DNA of 64,000 nucleotides from Magnetospirillum sp. SS-4 (GTDB lineage: Bacteria; Pseudomonadota; Alphaproteobacteria; Rhodospirillales; Magnetospirillaceae). Both the position numbers and the translations under genes were made by a program. The stretch covers positions 92,166-156,165 of the forward strand of contig NZ_LR746530.1 in NCBI RefSeq assembly GCF_902729425.1. Direction: 5' to 3'. Within the stretch, counting starts at the first letter, position 1; each line of letters opens with the position of its first letter. The notes beneath the pieces were generated by a model that saw only the letters and a list, made by a program, of their open reading frames with translations, was not told the DNA's origin and made no database searches. Shown here piece after piece: positions 14,101 to 28,780 of this stretch.

Positions 14101-17100
14101 CCTGGATTACGCCGGTTCCGCCATGGCCGGCGACATGGTGGCCCTGGTGGGATCGACCATCGGCGATTCCATCGTCGGCGGCGTCGCCAACGACACCATC
14201 ACCGGCGGACTGGGGGCCGACATCCTGGCCGGCGGGAGCGGAGCCGACGTCTACCGCTATACCGCCGCCACGGACTCGACTGGCGCCGATACCGACGTCA
14301 TCAACGGCTTCGTGTCGGGCCAGGACGTCATCCGGTTCGAAGGGATCGGCGGCATCGTCTACGACTCCACCGCCTATTCGTGGCAAGGTTCGCTGGCGGC
14401 GTCGCTGGGGGCGATCTCGGCCATCGACAATAAGCTGGTGTTCTTCACCGACGGGACCGACGGCTGGCTGCACGTCAAGGGCGCGGGAACCGGCACCAGC
14501 TTCGACGGCACCCTGATCAAGCTGGCCGGAATCATCGCGCCGCCGTCGCCGTCCAGCCTGGACGGCGTGACCCCCAATGCGGCGCCGGTCCTGACCCAGG
14601 TCGGCACGCAGACGACGCTTTACACCTTCGACAACCTGATCGCCGGCCAGACCATCGACGGTCAGGACGGCTGGGTCGCCAATACCACCGACCTGACCGG
14701 GGTGGCGGCGGCGACCGCGTCGGGCGACTATGCCGGATCGACCGCCTTCATCGCCGGCAACAGCGGCGGCAACACCACCCGCGGCGCCTCGCACCTGTCG
14801 AACGGTTCGCTGATGATGCCGAGCCTGACCCAGGGCACCAATCTGGCCCTGGAATTCGACATGTCCCATAATTATTGGGGCAGTTCCTTCCGGGTCGGCC
14901 ACGACGCCAACGCCAACGGCAGCATTCTGGAATACGGCCCCAATCACGAGACCCCCAACGTGGGCGAGCAGGCCATCGGCCTGTTCCTGAACCCCCAGGG
15001 CAGCAGCCTGACCCTGTTCGCCGCCGACGGAACCCCGACCACCATCGCCTTCACCCCGCCCGGCCAGTGGCTGCGCTTCCACATCGACCTGGACACCGGC
15101 GCCAACGGCGGCCAGGGAACCGTCAGCCTGTCCTACCGCGATCTCAGCAATTCAGGGCCATGGACCCCCATCACCGGCTTGCAGGGCCTCGACGCCCATC
15201 TGGATTGGGTGTCCTCGACGGCGACCAACCCGACCCTGTGGAACGGCGTTCAGTTCTGGGGCGAAAGCGGCACGTTCGCCATCGACAACATTTCCATGAC
15301 CAATTCGCCGCTGTCTCCCATCGCCGAGGATAGCGGCGATGGCGCCGGCAATGCCGGCACCCTGGTCTCGGCCCTGCTGGCCGGCCACGGCAGCGACGCC
15401 AATGTCGGAACCGTCCTGGGCGCCGCCATCACCTGGGCCGACGACACCCATGGCGATTGGGAATACAGCACCGACGGCGGCGCCACCTGGGCCGACATGG
15501 GCATGGTGTCCGGCACGGCGGCGCGGGTCCTGGACGCCGCCGCCAGGGTGCGGTTCGTGCCCGATTCCGATTTCAGCGGCAACGTCGGACTCATGTTCCG
15601 CGCCTGGGACCGCTCGGACAACGCCGCCAGCGGTTCCACCGTCGACCTGACCGCCGCCGACCCGGTTTACGGCGCCTACAGCACCCTGACCGCCAACGCC
15701 ACCCTGGCCGTCACTCCGGTCAACGACGCCCCGGTCCTGTCGGGCGTCACCCACGGCGCCCAGATGACGCCGAGCCTGCTGTTGAACGCCGAACCCGGCA
15801 TGGTCCGGTCCGGTCATGTCGTCGCCACCGACGCCGACATCGTCACGGGCGACATCCTGACCTATTCGCTGGGCGGCGGCACCCTGACCGCCCATGGCAC
15901 CGTCACCATCGATTCGATGACGGGGACCTTCAACTATCAGGCCAATGCCGGCTACCAGGGCAGCGACAGCTTTTCGGTCACCGTCACCGACAGGCATGGC
16001 GGCAGCGATACCGAGACCATCAATGTCGCCGTCTATCCCTATCACAGCCTGACCATCCCCGGCACCATCATCCCCCATGTGTCGCAGGGCGGCACCCTGA
16101 GCATCGGCGCGGCCTATCTGAAGGCCTTGGAAACGCTGCCGGTGGACGATTCCACCATCGTCTACACCCTGACCGACACGGTCGATCACGGCACCCTGAC
16201 CCTGTCGGGCGCGTCGCTGGGCGTCAACGGCACCTTCACCCAGGCCCAGATCAACCAGGGATTGGTGAAGTTCGCCGCCGACGCGGGCTATGCCGGAACC
16301 GACATGTTCATGGCCTCGCTGTCGGACGGCATCGGCGGCACCGGCAGCGGCAGTTTCTCGCTCAGCATCTATGCCGGCACCAACGAGGCGCCGGTGATCT
16401 CCACCGGTGCGCTGACCGCCGACCAGGGCGCCATCACCGCCATCGGCGCCGGACAGCTGAACGCCACCGACGCCAATACCGCCAACGGCATGCCGGCCAG
16501 CCAGCTGGTCTACACCATCACCGCCCTGCCGGCCCATGGCGCCCTGATGGTCAACGGCGCCGTGCTGTCGGTGGGATCGACCTTCACCCAGGCCGACGTC
16601 AACAATGGCGGCGGCGGCATGGCGGGGCTGAAGTATTTCAGCGACGGCAGTTCCTATCACCCCGGCGATTTCTTCTCGGTGACGGTCTCCGACGGCCAGA
16701 CGACGACCGCCGCCGCCTCGGTCACCATCGGTATCGACGCCGTCGACCAGGCGCCGGTGGCCGGCAACGGCGCCGGCCACGCCCGCTATTTCGACGGCAC
16801 GTCGCCGTCGTCGATCATCGTCGCCGATCCCAACAACCGGCTGGCCTTCACCGATTCGGTAACGCTGGAAGCCTGGATCAAGCCGGACTGGACCGAATCG
16901 CCCGGCGCCCGGACCCTGTTCGCCAAGGGCATGAGCACCCTGTCCATGGATTACGGCCTGCTGGTCAAGGAAGGGCCAGACGCCGAGTCCTTCACCCTGG
17001 TGCCGGTGGTCAACGGGGTCGAACTGGCCGAAAGCTCCATCGTCTTCGGCAATGACGCCTGGCATCATGTGGCGCTGTCGCTGAACGCCGCCACCGGCGT

Positions 17101-20100
17101 CGCGATGGTCTACGTGGACGGCGTCGCCGCCGACCCGGCCAGCTTCGCCGCCGGCTCGCTGCCCGCGACCATGAGCAACCTCCACATCGGCCAGTCGCCG
17201 GCCGGCAGTTCGTTCTATCGCGGCCTGGTCGACGAGGTGCGGATATGGCACGACGTCCGCACCGAGGCCGAGATCACGGCCGGCATGACCGGCCGCCTGA
17301 GCGGATTCGAAACCGATCTGGCCGGTTACTGGCGCCTGGACGAACAAAGCGGTTCCATCGTCGCCGACCTCACCCCCAGCCAGCTTCACGGCACCACCGC
17401 GACCGGATACACCCCCGAGGTGTCGGACCGGGCGCCGGTCACCCCAACGCTGGATGCCGGCGGCAACGGCCAACTGACCGGATTCGATCCCGAATCGGGC
17501 AGCCTGACCTATGTCATCGTCGATCAGCCGACCCACGGAACCATCACCCTCAACCCCAGCACCGGCGCCTTCGTCTATACCCCCGATTTCGGCTTCGACG
17601 GCGCCGACCGGATCACCTACAAGGTGTTCGACGGCACCCATTATTCCGCGCCGGCGGTGGCCGACCTAATTCCGCTCGACGTCAACGACGCCCCGCTCCT
17701 CCACGGCGTGAGCGCCCGCGGCGGAGCGCTGGTCATGAACGGCGGCGTCGCCGGAGCCACGGCGGCGATGCCCAGCAGCCTGTTCCCGAGCGTCGCGGCC
17801 ACGTTCGAGTTCGACGTCAACCTCAACGTCGCCAACGTGACCCAGCAACTGATCAGCCTGTCGTCGACCCAGTCGCCGACCGACAAGATGATCATCGGGG
17901 TGAATGCCAGCGGCCATATTTACGTCCAGGAGGGCAATACCTCCCAGGTCAGCACCGCCACCCTGTCGCCCGATGGCTGGCATCACGTCTCCGTTTCCGT
18001 CTCGATCGAGACCGGAGTCGCCACCATCGTCGTCGATGGGCAGGGATACGGCCACGTCGACGCCTTCCCCATCAGTCTGATGAATGTGGACCGGATCTCC
18101 ATCGGCGGCCCCGCCGACGGCTCCGCCATCGAGACCCTGAACGGCATGATCGACAATGTGCGGGTGTGGTCGACGGAAAGAACCCCGCTGGAAATGGCCG
18201 CGCAGGCGGGCGTCTCGCCGACCGGAGACGAGCCCGGACTGGTCGCGGCCTGGACTTTCGACGCCGCCGGCGGCGGCATGGTCGCCGACCTGACCGGCCG
18301 CCATCCGCTGACCCTGTCGGGCGGAGCCGCCACCCTGGCCCCGCCGGTCGAGGCGATGCATTTCAACGGGTCGAGCCAACTGGCCACGACCAGCGTGGTC
18401 AGCTTCGCCGACCACACCGTCGAAACCTGGATACGGACCGGCAGCGGCGCCTCGCAGGCGCAGATCATCGGCACCCACGACCCGGCGACGGATGGCGGCG
18501 CCAGCCTGTACCTGATGTCCGGCGGCACGCTGAGGGTGCAGGTGCAGACCGGCGCCGGCGATTACCAGACCTGGGACACCTCCACCCCGGTGGCCGACGG
18601 CCAGTGGCACCACGTCGCCTACAGCTTCGACTCCGTCGGCAAGACCGCCGTCATCTATGTCGACGGCGTCGCCCAGGCCACCACTCCCGGCGGCGGCGGC
18701 AGCCTCGGCACCCTGGCGGTGACCGGCAAGGAACTGGACATCGGTTCCGCCCAGAACCTGTCGCTGCGCTTCACCGGCGATCTGGGCGACGTGCGGATAT
18801 GGAACGACATCCGGACCGGAGCCGAGATTTCCGGCGGCATGAACCGCGACATGATCGGCGACGAGCCCGGCCTGCTGTACAATTGGGTGGTCGAGGCCGG
18901 CGGCCTTGTCCGGACCACGCCGTCCGCCATCGGCGTCGGCCTGTCCGGCATCACCATGATCGCCGACGGCGCGCCGTCCGGCGCGTTGACCGAACCGACC
19001 CTGCGCGAGGGCACCACCCTCAACGGCCGGGCGGTGGCGTTCGACCTGGACGGCGACACGCTGACCTTCTCGATGGCGACCGGCGGCGATCCGCTGCACG
19101 GCAGCCTGACCGTCAATCCGGACGGCACCTACGCCTACACCCCGACCGCCGGCTATGTCGGCGGCGACAGCTTCACCCTGCGGGTCACCGACGGCACCCT
19201 GAGCGCCGAGCGGACCATCGCCGTCACCGTCACCGATTCCACCGTGGTGCACGGCGTCGCCTCCGCCACCGGGGTTCTGTTCGCCGACGGAGCCGGACAG
19301 GCGGCGCTCGCCCGGCTGGACAGCCGCGACTTCAGCGCCAATCAGGCCAGCATCGAATTCGACGTCTCGCTGTCCGGCGCGGTTTCGGGAACGCAGCGGC
19401 TGGTGGCCCTGGCCAATTACAACGGCGTCGCCGATCTGGAGGTCACCGCCAACAACGACGGCTATATCAGCCTCCGGCTGGGCGCGACCAGCGTCGCTTC
19501 CGCCGAGTTCGAATACCAGGACTGGAACCGCGTCACCGTCACCTTCGACGGCGCCGGCGCCAACCTCTACCTGAACGGCCGGCTGGTCGGCGGCTCGACC
19601 ACCGGCGTCACCGCCGACATGCTGACCGACGCGGGCAAGCTGCTGATCGGTCCGGAGACCAGCGCCACCTCGCTGTCGGCGATGTTCGACAATGTCAAGC
19701 TGTGGAACCGGACGCTGAACCCGGACGAGATCGCCGGCGGCGGCGACATCCCGGCCACCGGACTGGTTGGGCACTGGAGCTTCGACCAGCCCGGCTCGAC
19801 CGCCGAGAATCTGGCCGGCAATTCCTGGAGCGACCTGACCCTGTCGTCCTCGGCCCATATCGGGCAGCCGCCGCTGCGGGCGGCCCGCTTCGACACCGGC
19901 CAGGCGGTGGACATCGCCGGTGGCCTGGCCAGCGGCACCGGCCCCGTCACCTACGAGGCCTGGGTCCGCACCACCATGGTCGGAACCGGCACCATCTTGT
20001 CGCTGGGCGACACCAGTTCCGCCACCGGCGGCGTCTCGATGATCGTCGATGACGGCCAGCTCGCCCTGATGAACCATCTGGGTACCCAGATCGTCACCTC

Positions 20101-23100
20101 CACCGCCGTCATCAATGACGGGATGTGGCACCATGTGGTGGTGACCATGGTGGGGCAGGACGCCCGCGTCTACGTGGACGGCGCGCTGGACACGATGCTC
20201 GCCTCCGCCGAGCCGGCGCTGAACATCACCAATGGCGCCGGCCGCATCGGCAGCTGTCTTGATAGCGGCACGCCCAATCCGTTCACCGGCGACATCGCCG
20301 ATGTGCGGGTGTGGAACGTCGCCCTGACCAGCGGCGCCGTCGAGCGCAACATGAATACCCAGCTGACCGGCCAGGAGGCTGGGCTGGTGGGCTATTGGAA
20401 GCTGGACGAGGGCGGCGGCGCCACCGCCTACGATCTGGCGGGTACGGCGCAGAATGGGACCTATTCCGGCACCCCCGCCTGGGTGACGGCCGATCATGGC
20501 GACCTTACCGGCGGCGGGATCGTGAAAACCGCCCTCACCTTCGCCGGCGATCAGGCGGCCAATGCCGGCGACATCTTCGACCTGGGCCGGGGCGATTTCT
20601 GCATCGAGGCCTGGGTCAGGCCGACCAGCATCACCGGCGAGCACGTCATCGTCAGCAAGGACGCGGTCGGCGCCACCCAGCCGGGCTTCAGCCTGAGGCT
20701 GGACGAGGGCATTCCGGTCCTGAGCGTCGCCGGCACCGACATGGTGTTCGGCAACGTGGCCCTGACCGCCAGCCTGTGGACCCACGTCTCGGTCAGCCGC
20801 TGGAACGACATGTACATGCTGACCGTCAACGGCCAGCCGGTGGGGGTGGTCCAGGGTCCGGACCTCAACCTCGCCAACGATTACGACCTGCTTCTGGGGG
20901 CCCGCGCCGGCAGCGGCGGCACCGGCATCGACAACGCCACCAGCTTCCAGGGCCAGATCGCCGGCGTCAGGCTGTGGAACGACAGCCGCGACCCCGAGGA
21001 TATCGCGGAAAACATGTACCGCGCCGACATCGCCGACCACGACCTCGTGGCGTCGTGGACCGGCGACGGCGTGGCCGACGCATCGGGCAACAACCATGTC
21101 CTGACCCTGGACGGGGCCACGGTGGCGGCTGTCGCGGGCACGCTGTATCTCGGCGACAGCATCCTGGAGATCGACAGGAACCAGCCCTATCACGGCACCC
21201 TGCTGGCGACCGACGACAGCGGCGCCGCGTTGACCTATTCGGTGGCGACCAATCCGGAGCATGGCGCCATCGCGCTCAATGCCGACGGCAGCTTTGCCTA
21301 TACGCCGAATGCCGGCTATGTCGGCCCCGATAAATTCGTGCTGAAGGTCAATGACGGACGCGGCGACACCACCAAAGAGGTGATGCTGACAGTGCGCGAC
21401 ACCACCGACATCCTGGGAGCGCGCCAGCAGGATGCCGTACTGGCCTTCAAGGCCGGCCAGACCGCCGCCATCGCCAATACCGGGGCCATGGCGCTCCTGG
21501 GACAGGGTGACTTCACCATCGAGGCCTGGATCAATCCGGTCACTATCGCGGGCGCCCAGACCCTGGTCTCCAAGGGCAGCGGCGGCGAGGCCCTGTCGCT
21601 GTCGCTGGTGGCTGGCAAGCTTTCCTTCACCGTCACCGACAATAGCGTCACCTCCACCGTGCAGGCCCCGGCGGCGCTGACCGCCGGCCAGTGGGCGCAT
21701 GTGGCGGTCACCCGCCACGGCAGCGAGTTCGCCCTGTTCGTCGACGGGCAGCAGATGGCGGCCGACACCATCGCCGGCATCACCTCGCTGCTGCCGGCCG
21801 GCAGCCTGACGCTGGGCGGCAGCTTCACCGGCATGATGGACGAGATCCGGGTATGGGATCGCGGCCGCACCGCCTTCGAGATCGCCGATTCCGCCCATGA
21901 ACGGATCGATTACGACAACGGCCTGATCGCCCAGTTGAACGGCCAGGATTACGGCGGCAACATCTTCGAGGACCAGTCCGGCAACTACGACGTCGATCTG
22001 TCCACCGGGCTTGCTCCCAACACCTCGTCGCCGTTGAACAAGGCGCTGCATTTCGACGGCTCGGCCTCGGTCAACATCGGGAACAATCTCGGCCTGAGCA
22101 CCGGGCCGTTGACCATGGAAGCCTGGATCAGGTGCGAGACACTCGGCAGCAACAAGGCCATCATGGCCGTCGGCTCCGGAGCCTCTCATAACGGACTCGC
22201 CCTGTTTGTCGGCCCCACCGGCAAGCTGGGGGTGGAGATGTCCGGTTGGGGCGATGTACAGGGCAATGCCGTGGTCGCCGACGGAAATTGGCATCTGGTC
22301 ACGGCCTCCATCGCCAGTAACGGCGCCGTCAGCTTCTACGTCGACGGCATCGCCGACGGCACCGGCTCCATACCATTTACCTACGACCTCACCGCCGGCG
22401 TGGCCCGCATCGGCACCTCCTACGACGGCACTGCCTACACGTTCGTGGGTGATATCGCTGATACCCGCATATGGGGCTCGATCCGCACCGCTGCCGAGAT
22501 TCAGGGCAGCATGAACACCCAGTTGACCGGCTCCGAGGGATCGTTGCTGGGCAATTGGCAGATGAACGAGATCGTTGGCGGCACCGCCGTGGTGGATGTG
22601 GCGTCGGTTCCTCACAACGGCACCATCATCGGGACCGTGACCGTCATCGATAATGGCGGGCCGCGCATCGTCGAACCACCCAGCGCGGCCATGCATCTCG
22701 CCAGCGGTACTGTCATTGACCTGGGCAACACCACCGTTCCCCAGGGGGTCCACGACTTCACCTTCGAGACCTGGGTGCGGACCTCCGCCACCGGGCAGGC
22801 GCAGAATCTCTATGTCGCCGGCAATGGCTCTGCCTCCAGCGAGTTCCTGGTCAATACAACGACAGCCAGCATCCAGGATCAGCCAAGCGTAACGGGGCTT
22901 GATGGTGGCGGCTTCGTGGCGACGTGGCGGGATTTCAGCCAGAGCGGCGACGACACCAGCAGCTACGCCATCCGCGGACAATTGTTCACGGCCAGCGGCG
23001 CCAAAAGCGGCGGCGAATTCGTGGTCAACACCACGACCGCGTCGCACCAGGAAGAGCCCAGCGTCGCGAAGCTGGATGGCGGCGGCTTCGTGGTGACGTG

Positions 23101-26100
23101 GACGGACAGCAGTTTCAGCGGCGGCGACACCAGCCTCTATGCCGTGCGCGGGCAGATGTTCAATGCCAGCGGCACCAAGACCGGCAGCGAATTCCTGGTC
23201 AACACCACGGTCGACAATGCCCAGGACCAGTCCAGCGTGACGGGGCTTGATGGCGGCGGCTTCGTGGCGACGTGGCGGGACTACAGCCAGAGTGGCGGTG
23301 ACGCCAGCAGCTATGCCGTGCGCGGACAGCTGTTCGATTCCAGCGGCGCCAAGACCGGCGGCGAATTCCTGGTCAATACCACGACTACTGGAGGGCAGTA
23401 CGCCCCCAGTACGGCGGCGATTGACGGTGGTGGATTCGTGGTGACTTGGTTTGACGCCAGCGCGACCGGCGGCGATACCAGCGGCAATGCCGTGCGTGGG
23501 CAGATATTCGATTCCAGTGGCGCAAAGTCTGGCGGCGAATTCCTGGTCAATACCACGACTCTTAATGGCCAATTGGCTCCCAGCGTATCGAACTTGGCCG
23601 GTGGTGGTTTCGTGGTGACGTGGGAAGATTTCAGCCAGACCGGTAGCGATACCAGCGACTATGCTGTGCGCGGCCAGGTGTTCGCAGCCGGCGGCACTAA
23701 GATCGGGAACGAGTTCCAGGTCAACACCACCACTTCCGGCGCTCAGGATGCAGCCAGTGTGTCGGGACTGGCGAACGGCGGTTTCGTGGTGACGTGGGAA
23801 GATTACAGCCAGACCGGCGGCGACGGCAGCGACGCCGCCATCCGGGGACAGGTCTTCAATGCCAGCGGCACCAAGATCGGCGGAGAGTTCCTGGTCAACA
23901 CCACGACATCCGGAATCCAGAATATCCCAAGCGTTACCGGGCTTACCAACGGCGGTTTCGTGGTGACGTGGCAGGATTACAGCCTGAGTGGCGGCGACAC
24001 CAGCGCCGCCGCCATCCGGGGGCAGGTGTTCAACGCCAATGGCGAACCCGCCTCCGGTCAGGGCGCGGCCATCCAGATCCTCGCCGATGGCCGGATCGGC
24101 ATCGGCTCCGGGTTCTCGGGGACCGGGGCACTTGCCTCCAACGATGTGGTCAATGACGGACTGTGGCACCATGTGGCGGTCAGCGTCACCGGCGCCACCG
24201 GCGATTACCAGATCGTCATCGATGGCCAGACCAGTGGCATCGGCACCTTGGGAACCTCCATCGACCTGACCGGCCATGCCGCCGTCGGCAGCGGCTGGAA
24301 TGCCGGCGCCCCGGGGGCGAATCCCTTCGTCGGCGATCTGGCCGATCTCCGGGTGTGGGATACGGTTCGCACCGCCGCCCAGATTGAGGACGCCATGGGC
24401 CGGCAACTGGGCAGCGTTCCCGATCTGGTGGGTAATTGGCACCTGGACGCGGTCGACGGAGTCTCGGTGACGGATTCCTCCGCAACGCCCCACAACGGTA
24501 CCGTCACCGGTACCCTGACCCCGGTTTCCACCGGCTCGCCCATTTACGAGCAGGTGATCCACGCCGATTTCGGCGCGCCCTATCACGGCGTTCTGGCGGC
24601 GGAATCGTCCATGGGGGCCATCGCCTGGGCGCCGGCCGGCGGCAGCGCCGGCACGGCGTTCGACACCGCCCACGGCACCATCACCATCCAGGGCGACGGC
24701 AGCTTCGTCTATGTGCCGGACGCCGACTGGCACGGCATCGACAGCGTCATCGTCGAGGCCATCGGCGCCGGCGGCTCCATCACCAAGAAAGCCATCGCCA
24801 TCGAGGTCGGAAGCCCGGTCGAGCCGGTCGGCATCGGCGCCGCCGGCGCGACGTTGCAGTTCAACGGCACCAGCCAGTATGCCCAGAGCAGCGCCATCTC
24901 TCTGGCCAACACGTCCTTCACCTTCGAGATATGGGCCAACCGCACCCGGACCGACGCCGACGAGATGCTGATCGGCCAGGGAACCTCGGCCAGCCTGGAT
25001 CAGTCCCTGCATATCGGCTATCAGGTCAATTCCAACACCTTCAAGATGGATTTCTGGGGCGACGCCATCACCTATACCGACGCATCGCCCAATCTGAACA
25101 CCTGGGTGCACTGGGCCGGCAGCTACGACGCCGCCACCAACCAGGCGGTCTTGTATAAGAACGGCGTCGAGGTGGCGCGCCAGGCCATGGCCGGCGACTT
25201 CAACGGCACCGGTCCACTGACCATCGGCCAGGCGTTCGGCGGGAATTTCTTCGCCGGCCAGCTGGACGAGATCCGCATCTTCAACGACGTGCGCAGCGCC
25301 GCCGAGATCGCCGACGATTACCGCCGCCGCGACCTGGAGGACGCCGACCACCTGCTGGCCCAGTGGTCGATGGACCGTGTCCTGAACGCCAGCCAGGGCG
25401 TGGCCCATCCCTTTGTCCCGGATTCGTCCGGGGCCGGCCGTCATCTGGTCCTGGGCAGCGGAACCGCCTATGACTCGACCGTGCCGCAATTCGTCAATGT
25501 CGGCGGCCGGGCGACGTCGTTCAACGGAACATCGTCGAAGATCACGGTCCCCGACACCGGCGACATCGCCAGCCTGGGCAGCGGCGATTTCACGCTGGAG
25601 GCGTGGGTCAACCTCGCATCCGCCAGCGGCGAGGCGACGCTGCTGTCCAAGGAGACCGCCGGGCATGAATTCCGCCTTGGCGTCAAGGACGGCAGCCTGT
25701 TCTTCCAGGCCAACGACGGACTGGGGCAGACCCTCTGGAACACCGGCGGTTCGGACTATTACCTCAAGGCGGCAAGCGCGCTGAGCGTCGGCCAGTGGAG
25801 CCATGTGGCGGTCACCGGTTCCGGCGACACCTTCACCTTGTGGATCAACGGCGGCGTGGCGGCGACCTACACCGCCGCCGGCATGGGCGAACTGGCCACC
25901 GCCAGCGCCCTGGCGATCGGCGCCCGTGTCGTCGACGCCAGTTCCTCGGATTATTTCTCCGGCATGATCTCGGATGTGCGGGTCTGGAACCACGCCCGCA
26001 GCCAGTCCGACATCATGAGCTACATGAACACCCGCCTGTCCGGCGACGAATACGGCCTGGCCGGCAACTGGCGCCTTGACGACCTGTCGGCCGGAACCGC

Positions 26101-28780
26101 CCCCGACACCACCGGAACCGCCGCCGGAACCGGCACCAGCGTCAGCATGTCGGGCGTCAAGCCGCTGGTCTACGCCGACACCGTCACCACCCGCGAGGGA
26201 ACCATGGTGCGTGGCGGCCTGCTGGCCATCGACGGCGATCCCGACGCCGCCATGACCGCCGCCGTCGCCCAGCAGGCGAACAACGGCACCGTCGTCATCA
26301 CCGGCAGCGGCGCCAGCCTGGCCTACGCCTATACGCCCAACGACAATTTCGCCGGCAGCGACAGCTTCATGATCGGCATCAACGACGGCAGCGGCAACCT
26401 GACCTACGCCACCATCGGCGTCCTGGTGCGCCAGGTGCATCAGGCGCCGCAGATCAGCGGCGCTACGTCCTACACCACCGATTGCTGCGGCGCCCAGGTC
26501 CTTGGCCTGACCGTCACCGACGACATCGGCGACGTCGGCTATCAGAAATACCAGCTGGAGCTGGACGCCGGACACGGCATCATCACCCTGGCCGCCACCG
26601 GCGGGCTGACCTTCGGGTCGGGAACCGTCAACGGCTCGTCGGCCATCGTGGTCACCGGCACCCTGGACCGGATCAACGCCGCCCTGGCCACCGCCACCTA
26701 CGCCGCCGATCCCTATTGGAACGGCGGCGGCGGCGACAACCTCGCCGTCAAGGTATGGAACATTTCCGCCGATGGCGCCGGCCACACCCTGGTGACCGAG
26801 ACCGCCCTGCCGATCACCGTCGCCGACCGCACGCCGGTCGCGACCTCGGCCGCGCTGGCGGCGGCCATCGACGGCGCCGCCGTCACCGGAACCTTCACGG
26901 TGCTGGACCCCGAGGGCGCGCCCCTGACCTTCGGCACCATCAGCGGCCCCAGCCACGGCGTCCTGACCCTGAATTCCACGACCGGCGCCTACAGCTATGC
27001 CGCCAGCGACGCCAATTTCACCGGAATCGACAGCTTCACCTGGAGCGCCAGCGACGGCACCCGGACGCTTCAGCACACCGAGCGGGTCGAGGTGTACGGA
27101 CACCAGACCGCCTACGCCTTCGAATCGAACCCGCTGGCGGCCGATCCCCTCGGACTGGCGGCGCTGGACAACGCGACCCTGTGGCACAGCGCCGGCAACG
27201 ATGCCGTCGGCGGCCTGTCCCTGACCTCGTCCACCCTGTCGGTAAGCGGCGGAAGCGTCACCATCGACGTGGGGGCCTCGATCAACGCGGCGTCGCTGCT
27301 GTCGGTCGAGTCCGGCGGCAGCGTCGAACTGGCGGCCGGCGGCCTGATGACGTCCGGCGGCCTGATCAGCCTGTCCGGCGGCACCCTGACCGGCGCGGGC
27401 ACGGTGTCGCAGACCGGCGGCACCATCGCCATCCGCGGCGCCGACAATTATTTCGGCGCCGCCTACCAGAACGCGGCCGCCACCGTGCTGTTCATCGGCC
27501 ACGAGATCGATTCAGATTCGACGGTGGTGTTCGAGCACGGATTCGCCAATCAGGGAACCCTCAACCTGCATTCCGGCAATTCCTATTCGTGGTCGGGCGT
27601 CAACGTCCTCGGCGCTCTCGACAATCACGGCGTCTTGCTGTCGTCCGGCGCCGAAGCGGGCCACAACTTCATCAATGCCGCCAGCCTCGACAACAACGCC
27701 ATCTTCCAGGTGGACCGCACCCTGGAACTGACGGTCGCCGACTTCGACAACCATGGCCGGCTGATCCTGGGAGGATCGGGGACGGGGGCCGCCCTGACGG
27801 TGGCGGGATCGTCGCCGTCCACCGCCGCCCTGTTCGACAGCCACGGCAACATCCAGGGCAACGGCACCATCGACGTGACCAACGCCACCTTCGTCAATCA
27901 CGGCTACATCACCCCCGGCGCCGCCGGAATCGCCGGCACCTTGCATGTGAGCGGCGACCTGATCCTGAGCGGCGAATCGCACGTCGTCCTGGACGTCTGC
28001 CCCACCGGCATCGGTTCGGGAGCCAGCGACCAGCTATGGGTAGACGGCAACCTGACCCTGGACGGCGTCCTGCACGTCTCGGCCTCGGCCCGGCCGGACC
28101 TTCCGGTCCTGGCGCTGAACTGGGGGTCCTACGACGGGGCGTTCGATTCCATCACCGGCCTGGACAACAGCGCCGGCGGCTGGCTGCTGGACCCGGTGTT
28201 CAGCAATACCGGCCTGACGCTGACGGCGCAAACCGCCACGGTGATGACCTCGAACGCCTCGTATTCCGACACCGGCATCACCGACAGCTACGTCATCGCC
28301 ACCGGCAGCGGCAACGTCGCCCATCTGGGCGGCGGCAACGATGTGTTCATCGGCAAGGGCGGCAACAACGTGGTCGGAATCGGCGACGACGACTTCCACT
28401 TCCTCAACGGCGGCTCGGGCGGCGGCAATCAGTTGTGGTGGGAAAGCGCCGACCTCAACAAGGCGTTCGACATGACCCAGTTGCAGACCAACGCCTTGCA
28501 GAATTTCGACGTGCTGGACCTCAGCCGCGCCGGCAACGGCAGCGCCATCCTCGACCTGGCCCACATCCTGTCCATGACCAATGGCGTCAACGCCGTCACC
28601 GGCCAGGCCAACCAGCTCGTGGTGATCGGCGCCGACAGCGGCTCGGTCAGCTTCGCCGACAACGGCTGGCAGGCGGTGGGACAGGTGGAGCTGGTGGTCA
28701 ACGGCCAGCAGGACAGTTACACCCAGTACAGCAAGAACGACACCCAGGTGCTGGTCAGCAGCGACACCCATGTAAGCTGA
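2..28780 (+). CDS. Giant RTX/cadherin/LamG repeat protein, secreted, 5'-partial
   Basis: The reading frame is open from the first complete codon at the left edge, so the true start lies outside the window. More than 9,590 residues are visible. Residue numbers here count the GTG at position 14 as 1. Order seen: Ala-rich helical region (1-720); cadherin/Ig-like repeats with APVAAADSATLNEN and VNDAPVM signatures (728-1650); RTX nonapeptides of GGxGxDxxx type (1652-2740); seven-unit repeat block (2748-3121); RTX again (3123-4843); a beta-sandwich-like stretch (4856-5097); cadherin-like repeats; eleven LamG-like domains (5590-8713); cadherin-like repeats; a beta-helix-like Gly/Thr/Ser stretch (9035-9370); and a C-terminal domain typical of type I-secreted proteins. 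Cysteines are very rare. It is probably a calcium-stabilised surface adhesin or biofilm matrix protein; that role is inferred from domain content. No type I ABC transporter genes lie in the window. Confidence 0.93.
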   Translation, partial: NAQAVLTHYNANNDPDFAGTLTEFLASAGFEAAALAARTAGAITTAWETALNGIAAAYDSIIEAEGTLAGLDTLADTALGDAQAAATLAGQKAADATANADTAEAQDAIADATSDDGVAATAAATAAAAAKDAADAAFAARTQVAIAAAKVSTVANLQTQIGADVSDAATLVSSAVNKTTILAAITSATDYHAAADANRTLAQADIATIASAVGTSGDANTAAGRLATLTALYNTWVVNQTAAASADPQTRALIDSAYKLAVQADGVIQSARTKAADLFDKTGSALDVEGQLAAALAAKTAAAAAATASDAVKAATDAKAAADLVAQYTVLIDSAAATATGNTGVITTQLSNATTAASVLTAATNTKVHADTAAAQAAIAATQEAIATAKAAEAKAEAALAGDAAANAANAIIADPLADISALINSAASHAALAHAAAVAASAAQDAASAASVAADAAAASAATAASGQAVGSAAARLATAAQTSATAAQASDTAATAAETAAIAADSKAADAADAAADAATDATAALARAIDAIEGDIASRALASEANKTIAQAQATLAANTYDAAGSTDDVKGRLAAVIADMQDWYNDHLTDLGTATLSTLSTLIGKAGQLDALAAARATAADAAAQLVTTADAAIDQNVIDIAALSAEATPDAADMTAAQAERADTNAQALVAANQTAIAQAATQAVLQVQANVGAIETGFANFKSQVSATIKAANAQAIKTAETGAAPVAAADSATLNENIGLATNKVTVGVLSNDTYLGTATVSAISGAANGTVVLNSDNTITYTPNKYFSGTETITYTLTNTATLNVAQSKVEDSDPDSVTLNRVFTTTGTLTVTVNHVNVAPTITNLTVVGLENTSGSQSVAFTASSFTNAYTDLNGQALSKVMISTLTAHGTLLLNGTAVTLNQEISAAQLGNLTYRPNQYYNGIDTFQWKASDGELYSSAAATGSISLQAVVTAPTVTTVSASGNENTTATLQQVPLSITVADADTSDFIKSVVITGVPANVSLSAGTMTSSGTWSLTAAQLTDLKLIPAQNYNGSFDLTVTATSADLTDVNKTSKTVKTLHVDVAPGLSAPTVVLSAAGTEASTGIAHAAPIAITTADTVNSIKISGLPAGTSLSLGTTALTAVGGTYTLSGSSNLAALNDTLATLKINTPAYFNGTVSLNVAVLVSDGGLSQTYASVKPFVIAPVASAATLTTPTAAGAETALGAVIPLSVSAVNADTSDDSLTIRISGLPAGATLSAGTLSGGTYTLTPAQLSGLAMQVPAYFNGPVDLTVQAVTVDGASTQTATSTLHVDVANTASLPTITAPAASGNQDGDIALSLSVANPDTSDTVAVKIFGLPAGATLSAGTLSDGTYTLTPAQLSGLSLTPAAGYYGSSTLTVQAISTDGSASQTATSPLLLEVLHPNEAPSISVGGSFSVGEDSPSSLSGLSMSDPDSLPTDDVLVTLTVEHGVLTLSTTGLTFTVGDGAGDATMTFTGAKTAVNDALATLSYLGNPDFNGSDQLTVTIDDLGHFGTGGPLTATETLSFTVDAVNDAPVMIGASVLDVANIATATDTAMATDVDTGDTVTYHLWDGSSPTGSLVTLHGTVTIDSVTGVYTYTPAPATSEMEVGDSQADSFQVVAMDSHSELSSPVTVNVSITAPAIGTVGDDTFHSGAGDDVINGGAGSDAVVYDGQMADYAISTDAGGTLTVADGGANDGTDSLTGIETLIFADGTLTVAGGAGTQTLLGGIGVEHVTGGGGFAVIDLGDGDDSLTLAGADLAGLATLSGGLGADTLTLTGLPGLVTDSVFGQTSGFETVKLPALGGPTLSVGTQAGLSGIGTIDTSAVTGPLTLAGGGDPALDITLIGGSGDLVLPAAMSGTLTLVETGDTHVLDASAVPDSGFKGARQIGDDLALILSPAAGGGTLVVQDQFAGTGTGISHVHTGSENDPDETFIGSVGGQTTLTGGTGSEIFVSNPNVATMIGGGGDDTFFIAEADQTVIGDAAAQHGGIVGGEVNFTFATGPVVGDNLGASFAGVTTTMVDIDHIVGSAFDDTLSGGTGYVTLEGAGGDNTLSGGGTTTVSYQHAIAGIVANLSATDLTVGTITVASGTVLNGFGGTDSLTGIYRIRGSEAADVIRGGDSGFHVLDGRGGADTLIGGAGDTQFRTSLGGGATVIGGAGFNSLAFGNYMGGAVGDAAFANVSAIQTLSLYGNGTTATAASITLGTASAAAGITTVDGQGWTAGVTIDASARSNALTLRGGAGDDTLIGGAGINTLVGMNAGSGGEMEMGSSANAAITVNAAATTIVGAGGIDVIVGASQDIVFSDGTVAIRGGGATVTGGGGNDHLVVGATTTRVEAGFGDDVIMADAGDQVFAFDASQINAQDTIAGGSGVDTIALTGFAMLDDDAFANVSGVERLSLDAGATQAGLILGAEAQAAGIAAVDAALTTGSVAVDASAMSSGITLMAGSGVTSLLGGAGTDRVQVLADQADAALSSFSGGFQASFSGAYATASLMAAGVEELYFADGKSLTLAHNAGLATVIGGTGDDVIRTNWGVNVIDAGAGGSDTLISGGGSPATFRLHDGLESTDTIIGGVSSGDVIQLGGGVIADAAFANVTGIETLSLTGAATVTLGAEAQATGIMMVDASDSVGGVTIDVGSGGTPIFATGGSGDDTFTGGVGNHSFDGGDGIDTVTYGGTMAGYRIGAVNGVLTVEDINPGDGDDGVDTLANVEQLLFTDGTLSVAMGNGSLGTLTAAGTLALVNTVTTSNQEMPHVAALSGGGYVVTWRSIAQDGDSWGVYAQRYDAAGAPVGVETLVNTTTGSEQWGETVAGLAGGGFVVLWHSNGQDGSDWGVYGKVFDANGVPNAAGEFLVNTTTTGFQAWPAVTALADGGFMATWDGGNPRQIYGKRFDADSSMVVDEFQISTNTVADPVESLITLPGGDMVVFWHADGQETGASPTSGVFAQRFSPSGAKVGSVFQVNTTEASVQHGAAAQPLSGGGFVAMWHSDQQDGDNYGVIGRVYDSSGVPGAEFIVNTTTAGFQAYPAVTALPDGGFLAVWDAYPPASTAHNVFGQRFSALGQKVGSEFQITTDNFTGEHHPVITTLTNGDVVVAWYAPDADQTGIYTQRYTLTGGVADGATLTGGDGADQINVGSGIAAIDAGMGDDTIALAVGGLTSALTVNGGSGVDTIALTGFAMLDDAAFANVSGLERLSLDSGATQAGLILGAEAQAAGIVAVDAALTTGSVAVDASAMSSGITLMAGGGVTSLLGGAGTDRVQVLADQADATLSSFSGGFQASFSGAYATASLMAAGVEELYFADGKSLTLAHNAGLATVIGGTGDDVIRTNWGINVIDAGAGGSDTLISGSGGPATFRLHDGLESTDTVIGGASSGDVIQLGGGVIADAAFANVTGIETLSLTGAATVTLGAEAQAAGIAVIDTAFNSSAVTINAAAMSSGITIFDGAGSDTVIGGNFIQFNMPGPAETVTVAGGTVAISSGGSDDLLSGANVWLDYGGGDHLSVNSNGTEIIGAVADDNLIVGTGVAYADGSFGNDTITLQNGGMTLAVAGVETLIGGDGNDAVTLAGEFSGGSIDLGGGIDTLILTNLPGSTVADAAFADVSGVERLALAAGVTTATIALGAEAQAAGIAAVDAALTTGSVAVDASAMSSGITLMAGSGVTSLLGGAGMDRVQVLADQADATLSSFSGGFQASFSGAYATASLMAADVEELYFADGKSLTLAHNAGLATVIGGTGDDVIRTNWGINVIDAGAGGSDTLIGSGGPTTFRLHDGLESTDTIIGGVSSGDVIQLSGGVIADTAFANVTGIETLSLTGAATVTLGAEAQAAGIALVDASDSVGAVNVNHAGGGPGIQIRGGSANDILVGNGVAMDDASPYFPDFLDLSAATGAVTADLTAGSASGSGIGADSVSGFHAVIAGWYGNTLTGSAAGDLFWTTHLASLGTGDTIHGGTGADALQVNATTDLRGATIDGIEMITAGASQGLNLTVNLSQLSAMAASALTEGTGVLGIDFGLDAAPTSLTIAVDGSGSLTDILNTSSPQLYNLDRVILDASALTTGQTLGEGINTVTTILGGSGNDTISVHAGVVHDGWILDGGGGSDTVLVADGGLVDLTQATLNGVETIAIQAGNSAATVALTLGQAAGVTLDGGNTDSALTVDLRLADGGATFDAATLALVNWGAEDALRITGGGGDDTITGGSGNDVFGISGGADTIDGGGGDDLLDLYGLSGGATVNLASGTVMSSLGTTAVSSVERVADSADVDTLIGGFGADVFQLHGGVHEADVIDGGSGGDTIWLSQGADLRAASIASIETLAVNGSYSTVTLGKDQFGTGLSSALQLTGTGIGSRLEVEVLTAGFDASGFTFANWTDLSDWSTSNGNSVKLNAASASGLVTLTGSSGADYLLGSGYADTLTGGAGADKMDGGGGNDVFQLFANDAQAGETIIGGGGLDTIRLMGGNDLRGVGFTDVETLSLNGYSAMIRADQIPSGSVLSVVAGTGNETLYVYGDDSVGTDFRTVIGNLSLSGFAIGDRVSFIGGSGDDVLKSTMVIDALDGGEGNDTLIATSGADTFLGGGGDDLFDFTTSGLNLGVGTTISGGDGFDTLQANGNGANGSSNYSFYSNSISISGIERIVVRDTQYTFNSADFNGQAVEFQGLGALGTASAQLVFKMTGGASADLSQLTFGGTIPVSVTLDYAGSAMAGDMVALVGSTIGDSIVGGVANDTITGGLGADILAGGSGADVYRYTAATDSTGADTDVINGFVSGQDVIRFEGIGGIVYDSTAYSWQGSLAASLGAISAIDNKLVFFTDGTDGWLHVKGAGTGTSFDGTLIKLAGIIAPPSPSSLDGVTPNAAPVLTQVGTQTTLYTFDNLIAGQTIDGQDGWVANTTDLTGVAAATASGDYAGSTAFIAGNSGGNTTRGASHLSNGSLMMPSLTQGTNLALEFDMSHNYWGSSFRVGHDANANGSILEYGPNHETPNVGEQAIGLFLNPQGSSLTLFAADGTPTTIAFTPPGQWLRFHIDLDTGANGGQGTVSLSYRDLSNSGPWTPITGLQGLDAHLDWVSSTATNPTLWNGVQFWGESGTFAIDNISMTNSPLSPIAEDSGDGAGNAGTLVSALLAGHGSDANVGTVLGAAITWADDTHGDWEYSTDGGATWADMGMVSGTAARVLDAAARVRFVPDSDFSGNVGLMFRAWDRSDNAASGSTVDLTAADPVYGAYSTLTANATLAVTPVNDAPVLSGVTHGAQMTPSLLLNAEPGMVRSGHVVATDADIVTGDILTYSLGGGTLTAHGTVTIDSMTGTFNYQANAGYQGSDSFSVTVTDRHGGSDTETINVAVYPYHSLTIPGTIIPHVSQGGTLSIGAAYLKALETLPVDDSTIVYTLTDTVDHGTLTLSGASLGVNGTFTQAQINQGLVKFAADAGYAGTDMFMASLSDGIGGTGSGSFSLSIYAGTNEAPVISTGALTADQGAITAIGAGQLNATDANTANGMPASQLVYTITALPAHGALMVNGAVLSVGSTFTQADVNNGGGGMAGLKYFSDGSSYHPGDFFSVTVSDGQTTTAAASVTIGIDAVDQAPVAGNGAGHARYFDGTSPSSIIVADPNNRLAFTDSVTLEAWIKPDWTESPGARTLFAKGMSTLSMDYGLLVKEGPDAESFTLVPVVNGVELAESSIVFGNDAWHHVALSLNAATGVAMVYVDGVAADPASFAAGSLPATMSNLHIGQSPAGSSFYRGLVDEVRIWHDVRTEAEITAGMTGRLSGFETDLAGYWRLDEQSGSIVADLTPSQLHGTTATGYTPEVSDRAPVTPTLDAGGNGQLTGFDPESGSLTYVIVDQPTHGTITLNPSTGAFVYTPDFGFDGADRITYKVFDGTHYSAPAVADLIPLDVNDAPLLHGVSARGGALVMNGGVAGATAAMPSSLFPSVAATFEFDVNLNVANVTQQLISLSSTQSPTDKMIIGVNASGHIYVQEGNTSQVSTATLSPDGWHHVSVSVSIETGVATIVVDGQGYGHVDAFPISLMNVDRISIGGPADGSAIETLNGMIDNVRVWSTERTPLEMAAQAGVSPTGDEPGLVAAWTFDAAGGGMVADLTGRHPLTLSGGAATLAPPVEAMHFNGSSQLATTSVVSFADHTVETWIRTGSGASQAQIIGTHDPATDGGASLYLMSGGTLRVQVQTGAGDYQTWDTSTPVADGQWHHVAYSFDSVGKTAVIYVDGVAQATTPGGGGSLGTLAVTGKELDIGSAQNLSLRFTGDLGDVRIWNDIRTGAEISGGMNRDMIGDEPGLLYNWVVEAGGLVRTTPSAIGVGLSGITMIADGAPSGALTEPTLREGTTLNGRAVAFDLDGDTLTFSMATGGDPLHGSLTVNPDGTYAYTPTAGYVGGDSFTLRVTDGTLSAERTIAVTVTDSTVVHGVASATGVLFADGAGQAALARLDSRDFSANQASIEFDVSLSGAVSGTQRLVALANYNGVADLEVTANNDGYISLRLGATSVASAEFEYQDWNRVTVTFDGAGANLYLNGRLVGGSTTGVTADMLTDAGKLLIGPETSATSLSAMFDNVKLWNRTLNPDEIAGGGDIPATGLVGHWSFDQPGSTAENLAGNSWSDLTLSSSAHIGQPPLRAARFDTGQAVDIAGGLASGTGPVTYEAWVRTTMVGTGTILSLGDTSSATGGVSMIVDDGQLALMNHLGTQIVTSTAVINDGMWHHVVVTMVGQDARVYVDGALDTMLASAEPALNITNGAGRIGSCLDSGTPNPFTGDIADVRVWNVALTSGAVERNMNTQLTGQEAGLVGYWKLDEGGGATAYDLAGTAQNGTYSGTPAWVTADHGDLTGGGIVKTALTFAGDQAANAGDIFDLGRGDFCIEAWVRPTSITGEHVIVSKDAVGATQPGFSLRLDEGIPVLSVAGTDMVFGNVALTASLWTHVSVSRWNDMYMLTVNGQPVGVVQGPDLNLANDYDLLLGARAGSGGTGIDNATSFQGQIAGVRLWNDSRDPEDIAENMYRADIADHDLVASWTGDGVADASGNNHVLTLDGATVAAVAGTLYLGDSILEIDRNQPYHGTLLATDDSGAALTYSVATNPEHGAIALNADGSFAYTPNAGYVGPDKFVLKVNDGRGDTTKEVMLTVRDTTDILGARQQDAVLAFKAGQTAAIANTGAMALLGQGDFTIEAWINPVTIAGAQTLVSKGSGGEALSLSLVAGKLSFTVTDNSVTSTVQAPAALTAGQWAHVAVTRHGSEFALFVDGQQMAADTIAGITSLLPAGSLTLGGSFTGMMDEIRVWDRGRTAFEIADSAHERIDYDNGLIAQLNGQDYGGNIFEDQSGNYDVDLSTGLAPNTSSPLNKALHFDGSASVNIGNNLGLSTGPLTMEAWIRCETLGSNKAIMAVGSGASHNGLALFVGPTGKLGVEMSGWGDVQGNAVVADGNWHLVTASIASNGAVSFYVDGIADGTGSIPFTYDLTAGVARIGTSYDGTAYTFVGDIADTRIWGSIRTAAEIQGSMNTQLTGSEGSLLGNWQMNEIVGGTAVVDVASVPHNGTIIGTVTVIDNGGPRIVEPPSAAMHLASGTVIDLGNTTVPQGVHDFTFETWVRTSATGQAQNLYVAGNGSASSEFLVNTTTASIQDQPSVTGLDGGGFVATWRDFSQSGDDTSSYAIRGQLFTASGAKSGGEFVVNTTTASHQEEPSVAKLDGGGFVVTWTDSSFSGGDTSLYAVRGQMFNASGTKTGSEFLVNTTVDNAQDQSSVTGLDGGGFVATWRDYSQSGGDASSYAVRGQLFDSSGAKTGGEFLVNTTTTGGQYAPSTAAIDGGGFVVTWFDASATGGDTSGNAVRGQIFDSSGAKSGGEFLVNTTTLNGQLAPSVSNLAGGGFVVTWEDFSQTGSDTSDYAVRGQVFAAGGTKIGNEFQVNTTTSGAQDAASVSGLANGGFVVTWEDYSQTGGDGSDAAIRGQVFNASGTKIGGEFLVNTTTSGIQNIPSVTGLTNGGFVVTWQDYSLSGGDTSAAAIRGQVFNANGEPASGQGAAIQILADGRIGIGSGFSGTGALASNDVVNDGLWHHVAVSVTGATGDYQIVIDGQTSGIGTLGTSIDLTGHAAVGSGWNAGAPGANPFVGDLADLRVWDTVRTAAQIEDAMGRQLGSVPDLVGNWHLDAVDGVSVTDSSATPHNGTVTGTLTPVSTGSPIYEQVIHADFGAPYHGVLAAESSMGAIAWAPAGGSAGTAFDTAHGTITIQGDGSFVYVPDADWHGIDSVIVEAIGAGGSITKKAIAIEVGSPVEPVGIGAAGATLQFNGTSQYAQSSAISLANTSFTFEIWANRTRTDADEMLIGQGTSASLDQSLHIGYQVNSNTFKMDFWGDAITYTDASPNLNTWVHWAGSYDAATNQAVLYKNGVEVARQAMAGDFNGTGPLTIGQAFGGNFFAGQLDEIRIFNDVRSAAEIADDYRRRDLEDADHLLAQWSMDRVLNASQGVAHPFVPDSSGAGRHLVLGSGTAYDSTVPQFVNVGGRATSFNGTSSKITVPDTGDIASLGSGDFTLEAWVNLASASGEATLLSKETAGHEFRLGVKDGSLFFQANDGLGQTLWNTGGSDYYLKAASALSVGQWSHVAVTGSGDTFTLWINGGVAATYTAAGMGELATASALAIGARVVDASSSDYFSGMISDVRVWNHARSQSDIMSYMNTRLSGDEYGLAGNWRLDDLSAGTAPDTTGTAAGTGTSVSMSGVKPLVYADTVTTREGTMVRGGLLAIDGDPDAAMTAAVAQQANNGTVVITGSGASLAYAYTPNDNFAGSDSFMIGINDGSGNLTYATIGVLVRQVHQAPQISGATSYTTDCCGAQVLGLTVTDDIGDVGYQKYQLELDAGHGIITLAATGGLTFGSGTVNGSSAIVVTGTLDRINAALATATYAADPYWNGGGGDNLAVKVWNISADGAGHTLVTETALPITVADRTPVATSAALAAAIDGAAVTGTFTVLDPEGAPLTFGTISGPSHGVLTLNSTTGAYSYAASDANFTGIDSFTWSASDGTRTLQHTERVEVYGHQTAYAFESNPLAADPLGLAALDNATLWHSAGNDAVGGLSLTSSTLSVSGGSVTIDVGASINAASLLSVESGGSVELAAGGLMTSGGLISLSGGTLTGAGTVSQTGGTIAIRGADNYFGAAYQNAAATVLFIGHEIDSDSTVVFEHGFANQGTLNLHSGNSYSWSGVNVLGALDNHGVLLSSGAEAGHNFINAASLDNNAIFQVDRTLELTVADFDNHGRLILGGSGTGAALTVAGSSPSTAALFDSHGNIQGNGTIDVTNATFVNHGYITPGAAGIAGTLHVSGDLILSGESHVVLDVCPTGIGSGASDQLWVDGNLTLDGVLHVSASARPDLPVLALNWGSYDGAFDSITGLDNSAGGWLLDPVFSNTGLTLTAQTATVMTSNASYSDTGITDSYVIATGSGNVAHLGGGNDVFIGKGGNNVVGIGDDDFHFLNGGSGGGNQLWWESADLNKAFDMTQLQTNALQNFDVLDLSRAGNGSAILDLAHILSMTNGVNAVTGQANQLVVIGADSGSVSFADNGWQAVGQVELVVNGQQDSYTQYSKNDTQVLVSSDTHVS
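2195..4960 (+). repeat. Cadherin/Ig-like domain array in the giant protein
   Basis: Several ~90-110 residue beta-rich modules lie in tandem. They carry the usual bacterial cadherin-like marks: SDNTITYTPNKYFSGTETI near 2350, TYRPNQYYNGIDTFQW near 2767 and VNDAPVMIG near 4624. A distinctive sub-repeat contains ISGLPAGATLSAG-like cores at about 3349, 3712 and 4039, each followed by a YTLTPAQLSGL-like strand. Such arrays usually form rigid Ca2+-binding extenders in giant adhesins. Domain boundaries are approximate. Confidence 0.7.
7138..7897 (+). repeat. RTX long direct repeat, copy 1
   Basis: This is the first of three near-identical in-frame direct repeats in the RTX region. It encodes DAAFANVSG-type strands, a VDASAMSSGITLMAG segment, the QADAALSSFSGGFQASF segment and GTGDDVIRTNWG. 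Copy 2 has the same 760-bp length with only scattered substitutions; copy 3 shares the last ~664 bp plus a short extension to 7928. Confidence 0.9.
8255..9375 (+). repeat. Seven-unit ~53-aa repeat block 1 (possible beta-propeller)
   Basis: Seven consecutive units each start with a variant of VNTTT, continue through a P-x-V-x-x-L-x-x-GGF-V-x-W core, then a polar loop often holding QDG, and end with VYGQRFDAxG-like strands. Unit starts are near 8255, 8420, 8588, 8741, 8912, 9074 and 9239. Each unit has the strand pattern of a four-stranded blade. The block sits between RTX repeats, and its units are more divergent than those of block 2. Confidence 0.75.
9523..10282 (+). repeat. RTX long direct repeat, copy 2
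   Basis: This copy has the same length (760 bp) as copy 1. Differences include GGG for GSG near 9769 and ATL for AAL near 9835. It lies on the other side of the first seven-unit block, so copies 1 and 2 flank that block as direct repeats. Confidence 0.9.
10889..11549 (+). repeat. RTX long direct repeat, copy 3
   Basis: This copy aligns to 7265-7928 of copy 1 with one 3-bp deletion (LIGSGGP in place of LISGGGSP, near 11308) and few substitutions. Its right end shares the VDASDSVG segment with copy 1 but not with copy 2, so copies 1 and 3 share the longer right boundary. Confidence 0.9.
16780..26150 (+). repeat. Array of eleven LamG/concanavalin A-like domains
   Basis: Each ~190-residue module has FxGxxxxxx near its start, an EAWI/EAWV strand, a WHHVAVSxxxG...YVDG core and a closing xVRIWxDxRTxxEIxxxM strand followed by WxLDE. 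Approximate starts are 16780, 17710, 18350, 19250, 19870, 20520, 21420, 22035, 22675 (interrupted by seven-unit block 2 until 24052), 24830 and 25505. Short cadherin-like spacers with GSFAYTPNAGYVG-type strands separate some modules (around 17450, 19000, 21150 and 24560). LamG folds commonly bind carbohydrate; the ligand is unknown. Confidence 0.85.
22841..24052 (+). repeat. Seven-unit ~58-aa repeat block 2, inserted within a LamG domain
   Basis: Seven highly similar units each begin EFLVNTTT or a close variant, contain GGGFVVTW, then a loop with SGGDTS, and finish with AVRGQVFNASGTK-like strands. The mean unit is about 58 residues. The block interrupts LamG domain 9: the strands before it (DFTFETWVRT, NLYVAGNGSAS) and after it (GAAIQILADGRIGIGSG, LWHHVAVSVTG) join into a normal LamG sequence when compared with the preceding domain at 22035-22640. 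The sequence is a little less G+C-rich than its flanks. Confidence 0.8.
28250..28780 (+). other. C-terminal type I secretion-like domain of the giant protein
   Basis: The last ~175 residues contain a short RTX-like turn (GGGNDVFIGKGGNN), then FDVLDLSRAGNG, an ILSMTNGVNAV segment and QLVVIGADSGSV, ending in a Ser/Thr/Val-rich tail without charged clusters. This pattern is common at the C-terminus of alphaproteobacterial RTX proteins exported by ABC/MFP/OMP systems. The assignment rests on pattern recognition only. Confidence 0.6.

What the first reader, a model, noticed from the sequence alone, without database searches (positions are those of the whole stretch)
22675..24500. A seven-unit repeat domain nested inside a LamG domain
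LamG domain 9 of the giant protein is broken after NLYVAGNGSAS by seven ~58-residue units, then resumes at GAAIQILADGRIGIGSG. Removing the block restores a sequence that aligns strand by strand with the neighbouring LamG at 22035-22640. CAATGGC...GCCTCC occurs at both junctions (22822-22837 and 24037-24055), a possible trace of the insertion event. Domain-in-domain insertion of this kind in a repeat giant is unusual and suggests modules can be gained by loop insertion.
Basis: partly seen in the sequence, partly recalled or inferred. Interest (0 to 1): 0.82.

Follow-up and report, generated by a model that had tools for sequence, protein, structure and literature searches.

The report
Propeller domain nested inside lectin-like domain
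Inside a giant, probably adhesive, surface protein of an environmental bacterium, a lectin-like (LamG) domain is interrupted by what looks like a complete seven-bladed propeller domain, and relatives carry uninterrupted LamG domains at the same place, giving a glimpse of how such proteins could gain new binding parts.

The parts
2..28780 (+). window part (9,592 aa) of a giant open reading frame of 11,753 aa with RTX, cadherin-like, bacterial Ig and eleven LamG domains (the split one counted once)
22688..22837 (+). N-terminal part of LamG domain 9 (strands beta1-beta4)
   Evidence: LamG profile positions 9-51, E 0.002; four strands in model 2
22838..24055 (+). inserted block, 406 aa, predicted seven-bladed beta-propeller
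22841..23014 (+). repeat unit 1 (the next units follow every 174 bases)
23885..24055 (+). repeat unit 7, 57 aa, ends ...RGQVFNANGEPAS; no eighth outer strand follows
24056..24454 (+). C-terminal part of LamG domain 9 (beta5 to the end)
   Evidence: LamG profile positions 43-183; Pfam Laminin_G_3 45 bits for the 630-aa region, cut-off 27.6; strands in model 2
22022..22585 (+). LamG domain 8, uninterrupted neighbour used for comparison
24833..25393 (+). LamG domain 10, positional anchor on the other side
8255..9376 (+). second seven-unit array of the same repeat type, between RTX-like stretches of the same protein (RTX context read by eye)

Best explanation
LamG domain 9 of a giant RTX/cadherin/LamG protein is a split domain. 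Its fold is laid down as strands beta1-beta4, the chain then leaves through the beta4-beta5 loop, builds a complete seven-bladed beta-propeller of 7 x 58 residues, and returns to finish the LamG. Each unit starts with one outer strand (EFLVNTT) and goes on with three strands (SVTGL, GGFVVTW, AIRGQVF), so the first strand of the block would close the ring by pairing with the last three ('velcro'). That would put both ends of the propeller side by side, which is what a loop insertion needs. Shown by sequence: the nesting, the count and phase of the units, the uninterrupted relatives. Predicted: the propeller fold (high confidence) and the position in the LamG hairpin (moderate confidence). Inferred: the LamG acts as a scaffold that pushes the propeller sideways out of the fibre as a ligand-binding (probably glycan- or surface-binding) head; and the inserted propeller was not a copy of the array already in this protein but came from another lineage of the family.
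Against: No single model has both parts confident: in model 1 the LamG flanks have pLDDT 24-55, in model 2 the propeller drops to 53-88 (means of ten). No pair error or coordinates were available, so that the halves form one sandwich, that the ring closes by strand exchange, and that the ends lie side by side were not measured. In model 1 the outer strand is a full strand in only four of seven units, and the closing strand at the start of the block is a two-residue bridge (66-67). The left LamG piece is weak in sequence (E 0.002), and it passed the threshold in three of eight loci of G000/G011. LamG9 is at most 39% (G000) or 41% (G011) identical to uninterrupted LamGs of the slot series, and its nearest tree neighbours are slot-8 LamGs of two relatives (support 0.87), so the uninterrupted state is positional, not a recent empty allele. 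Deep nodes of the array tree around the block are unsupported (0.30, 0.0), so the donor is unknown. No ligand, secretion or adhesion evidence; the function rests on analogy.
Confidence: 0.72

Rival explanations
1. The LamG-with-propeller arrived in this slot as one piece by domain shuffling; the insertion itself happened in another LamG or protein.
For: LamG slots 8 and 9 do not form clean ortholog groups across the genus, while slots 7 and 10 do. G009 shares an 80% identical LamG8 but has a clearly different, uninterrupted LamG in slot 9.
Against: No other LamG-flanked propeller was seen: among the 211 arrays of the fetched loci only those of G000 and G011 have a LamG piece next to them, and in 385 class genomes no match other than the window's own runs far past the junction (query residue 72; the furthest ends at 89).
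Confidence: 0.35
2. The block is an open string or solenoid of seven repeats and not a closed propeller.
For: On the window's block no Pfam family reaches its cut-off and no NCBIfam family is listed, and no PDB chain matches convincingly by sequence. Outer strands are incomplete in three of seven units of model 1. 36 of 161 arrays do not have seven units.
Confidence: 0.05
3. No nesting: the two flanks are unrelated remnants, or a LamG decayed after being broken.
For: The left flank alone scores weakly (17.2 bits), the joined score is only the sum of the halves, and the LamG flanks are unconfident in model 1.
Against: The pieces follow on in profile order and align with uninterrupted LamGs; both halves look to be under purifying selection between G000 and G011 (dN/dS 0.14 and 0.40); LamG-like strands on both sides in model 2.
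Confidence: 0.06
4. The nested propeller is an enzyme domain of the CylK kind and not a binding head.
For: Closest solved fold is the CylK propeller.
Against: 13% identity, and no CylK chain listed at E <= 10 in three sequence searches of the PDB; the essential Arg105 of CylK comes from its other domain (PMC8916777, passages), and here the block's neighbour is LamG.
Confidence: 0.05

Closest known systems
Split domains with projected ligand-binding domains in RTX adhesins (AhLap, FrhA, MpIBP)
   Same: A guest domain buds from a host domain whose chain is discontinuous, in a long RTX-containing repeat protein (PMC12077191, abstract and passages; PMC10865825, passages).
   Different: Hosts described in the passages seen are Ig-like domains, an RTX beta-roll and possibly a vWFA domain; guests are CBM/sugar-binding, RTX-like, vWFA, PA14 and peptide-binding domains. 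Here the host is LamG and the guest a propeller. 'propeller', 'laminin' and 'LamG' do not occur in the main text of PMC12077191.
CylK seven-bladed propeller (7RON; PMC8916777, passages)
   Different: 13% identity, no sequence-detectable relation; an enzyme with its active site at the domain interface; not nested.
Bap1/RbmC biofilm adhesin propellers (PMC10102183, passages)
   Same: Velcro-closed propeller in a modular surface adhesin, where it binds the biofilm polysaccharide.
   Different: Eight blades; not in a LamG; a different protein family as far as tested (no sequence match in the PDB searches).
Recently amplified propellers such as WRAP and PkwA (PMC6805158, passages)
   Same: Blades of high mutual similarity; strand moved to the N-terminus for velcro closure; seven-bladed.
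   Different: WD40 family, shorter blades (the WRAP blade construct is 41 residues), not a loop insertion.
Trypanosomal trans-sialidases and NanB-type sialidases
   Same: Propeller and lectin-like domain in one chain (recalled); they make up much of the Foldseek list of model 2.
   Different: Six-bladed sialidase propellers (recalled); superposition rmsd about 16-23, so the relative arrangement does not match.

Membership tests
LamG (Pfam Laminin_G_3) | profile match above the curated cut-off | tested here: met
   45 bits for the 630-aa region with two stretches, cut-off 27.6; own profile covers positions 9-183 of 184 in two pieces
LamG (Pfam Laminin_G_3) | one beta sandwich formed by both halves | tested here: inconclusive
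   LamG-like strand order on both sides in model 2, but no pair error or coordinates; model 1 unconfident there
seven-bladed beta-propeller fold | seven blades in the arrangement of a solved seven-bladed propeller | tested here: met
seven-bladed beta-propeller fold | velcro closure of the ring by terminal strands | tested here: inconclusive
   phase of the 125 arrays fits 1+3 closure, but in model 1 the first strand is only a two-residue bridge
CylK alkylating enzymes | detectable sequence homology | tested here: not met
   no CylK chain listed at E <= 10 with the sequence, the array profile or the unit profile
CylK alkylating enzymes | catalytic Arg105 and Tyr473 across the two domains | not tested
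   no residue-level superposition available
split-domain pairs of RTX adhesins | host domain discontinuous in sequence around a guest | tested here: met
split-domain pairs of RTX adhesins | host is an Ig-like domain (the usual case) | tested here: not met
   host is LamG; an RTX beta-roll and a vWFA host are also described
split-domain pairs of RTX adhesins | guest binds a ligand on its far side | not testable with these tools
   needs binding assays
RTX adhesins | RTX repeats, adhesive domains, type I secretion | tested here: inconclusive
   RTX, cadherin-like, Ig-like and LamG domains found; secretion not tested; no type I secretion family among the ten nearby downstream ORFs scanned at E <= 1e-5, two of which had no hit

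The most novel reading that the evidence does not exclude
This locus shows how a split domain of an adhesin arises: an ordinary LamG in a tandem LamG series received a complete, self-closing seven-bladed propeller from another lineage in its beta4-beta5 loop, without loss of LamG residues, and became a scaffold that projects a new binding head. Velcro-closed propellers would then be portable loop cargo, and this CylK-like, often RTX-associated seven-unit family, for which I found no Pfam model of its own, would be a general stock of such heads in Alphaproteobacteria.
Probability: 0.35. Interest if true: 0.68.

Novelty: new variant of a known kind. Interest (0 to 1): 0.5.

Why it matters
Split host domains are used to recognise ligand-binding parts of giant adhesins (PMC12077191), but in the passages I saw nothing on how an ordinary domain becomes split. 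Here split and unsplit LamGs occupy the same slot in species of one genus, so the step can be tested. The same work outlines a seven-unit propeller family (30 of 385 class genomes at E <= 1e-10, the window's own included) whose closest solved fold is CylK, whose authors call it an unprecedented fusion of a calcium-binding domain and a propeller.

Tried and rejected
Junction repeat as an insertion footprint: rejected, chance level and altered on the left in the sister. Foreign base composition of the block: GC 0.631 against 0.651 in the neighbouring LamG sequence and 0.684 in the gene; not telling. Copy of the array already in the protein: rejected, the two arrays fall in different clades and are 39% identical; but the loci (best 80 of 204) were chosen by similarity to the block, which favours its clade. 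Exact junction residue from profile scores: not resolvable, many shifted joins score alike or better. Pfam hits on the repeats: 104 families over the 31 members of A4 at E <= 1, among them MoaF_like in 19 and CopC in 18 (best E 1.5e-17); cut-offs are not shown for these members; I disregarded them as sums over repeats because they vary from member to member, which is a judgement, not a test. Solved structures by sequence: one hit at E 1.3, two at 0.25-0.33 and none, all disregarded. Regex for the outer strand: it finds the motif at the start of only 72 of 125 arrays, so its low count after the last unit (10 of 125, background 14%) is a weak control. LamG-only rows together with propeller rows in one alignment: misaligned, hence two separate models. 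The structure lists are filled by propellers, so the LamG part was not tested by fold search. Searches for print, in the held open-access library only: split domain + adhesin + propeller, 0 papers; beta-propeller + domain insertion + LamG, 0; at least three of laminin G-like, beta-propeller, domain insertion, split domain, 0; the paper on companion split domains (10.1002/prot.26689, seen only in a reference list) is not held.

Full report
What is there. The giant frame (window 2-28780; 11,753 aa in all) holds RTX, cadherin-like, Ig-like and LamG domains. Between LamG8 and LamG10 a LamG is interrupted after residue 7612 by 406 residues and continues at 8019. The left flank matches LamG profile positions 9-51 (E 0.002), the right flank 43-183 of 184 (E 4e-26). 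With LamG8 left out of the seeds, the flanks joined in a script give one hit of 94.5 bits over positions 15-184. That is the sum of the flanks scored alone (17.2 and 77.2); with the block in place the pieces give 14.2 and 72.4. Joins that keep one to five units stay in two pieces; with six units kept one hit of 70.3 bits runs through positions 7-184 by using block sequence.

Relatives. In a search of 60 related genomes one, G011, matched the whole 639-aa query at 74%. Its contig length (152,450) equals that of JAUSFB010000045.1, a Phaeospirillum sp. MAG found as L064 with the same identity. Of the 16 other genus genomes I examined the LamG series in 11: G011 has the block; G001, G002, G005, G008, G009, G014 and G016 have an uninterrupted LamG in the slot between LamG8 and LamG10; G003, G007 and G013 have only one LamG between LamG7 and LamG10. 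Of the remaining five, G004 and G015 gave no match, G006 one weak match, G012 is 79% complete and was not fetched, and the two stretches fetched from G010 did not show the series. Stretches of G017, G020 and G025 (same family, other genera) were fetched too and are not counted. A tree of the slots shows clean groups for slots 7 and 10, but a mixed group for 8 and 9, in which G000 and G011 LamG9 pair with support 1.0 and next join G001 and G002 slot 8 (0.87). So the uninterrupted state is by position and subfamily, not a recent allele. In 385 class genomes (G011 not among those listed) no match at E <= 1e-8 other than the window's own runs far past the junction. Among 211 arrays in fetched loci a LamG piece lies next to an array only in eight loci, all of G000 or G011; the right piece passes in all eight, the left piece in three.

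Evolution. The block is 73% identical to that of G011, 51-56% to its thirteen next best arrays, at most 48% to genus arrays (the best being one of G010), and 39% to the second array of the same protein. It lies in a clade of 82 arrays (0.99) that includes that G010 array; the second array lies in another clade of 13 arrays from the genus and from G017 of the same family (1.0). Nodes close to the block are unsupported, so its source is unknown. Within the block units appear to have been exchanged: G011 units 3 and 5 are 88% alike in protein and 85% in DNA with a shared run of 51 bases, and G000 unit 3 is closer to G011 unit 1 (72%) than to G011 unit 3 (65%). The number stayed at seven in both. 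dN/dS between the two genomes is 0.14 and 0.40 in the LamG halves, 0.38 over the block, 0.21 in units 1, 2 and 7, and 0.36 in LamG8 (a simple Nei-Gojobori count of my own). The family occurs in 30 of 385 class genomes, the window's own included.

Mechanism. In RTX adhesins, ligand-binding domains bud out of split domains that project them from the fibre, with both ends on one side (PMC12077191, abstract and passages; PMC10865825, passages). The present case fits that logic with other parts. Bap1 and RbmC use an eight-bladed velcro propeller to bind biofilm polysaccharide (PMC10102183, passages). New propellers arise by amplification of blades, and velcro closure by strands moved to the N-terminus is frequent (PMC6805158, passages). 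That this propeller binds a ligand is inference; glycan or surface polysaccharide is my best guess.

The junction repeat. CAATGGC...GCCTCC is present at both places, but of 5,000 draws of random in-frame pairs in the gene 21% reach its alignment score and 28% its word length, and G011 reads AGCGGCCCCACCTCC at the left while its right copy is intact. I reject it as evidence.

Verdict. Observation confirmed, nesting supported, footprint rejected. New variant of a known kind. Interest 0.5: the split and unsplit states in one genus and the propeller family are worth a specialist's time, but function is unknown and nested domains in adhesins are known.

Noticed in passing
window 8255-9376: A second seven-unit array of the same repeat type lies between RTX-like stretches of the same protein and belongs to a clade of 13 arrays from the genus and one related genus.
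   Followed up: partly
L078, L080, L092, L101, L104, L129, L141, L033: Ten non-redundant arrays in these loci have eight units, against the rule of seven; possibly eight-bladed.
   Followed up: no
L013 114-878 (residues of its frame): A run of 14 units, perhaps two propellers in tandem.
   Followed up: no
G051:C1:149680-157920 and 1799380-1805970: Several propeller matches with equal or near-equal scores at regular spacing within ORFs of 4,013 and 4,177 aa, suggesting recent large tandem duplications.
   Followed up: no
L034 (start of the giant, upstream of the window): The N-terminal region of the giant looks like a FecR-type domain by eye; no domain search was run on it.
   Followed up: no
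window 28846-30222 (-) and 30553-32106 (+): An OprB-family porin and an alginate-export-like protein lie just downstream of the giant.
   Followed up: no
window 21428-25393, LamG slots 7-10: LamG slots 7 and 10 are stable across the genus while slots 8 and 9 are mixed or lost, so this stretch may be a hot spot of domain shuffling.
   Followed up: partly
L054 3914-6733: An IMG/VR contig encodes a free-standing seven-unit propeller followed by a part that looks lipase-like and RTX-like by eye; I did not test whether the contig is really viral.
   Followed up: no
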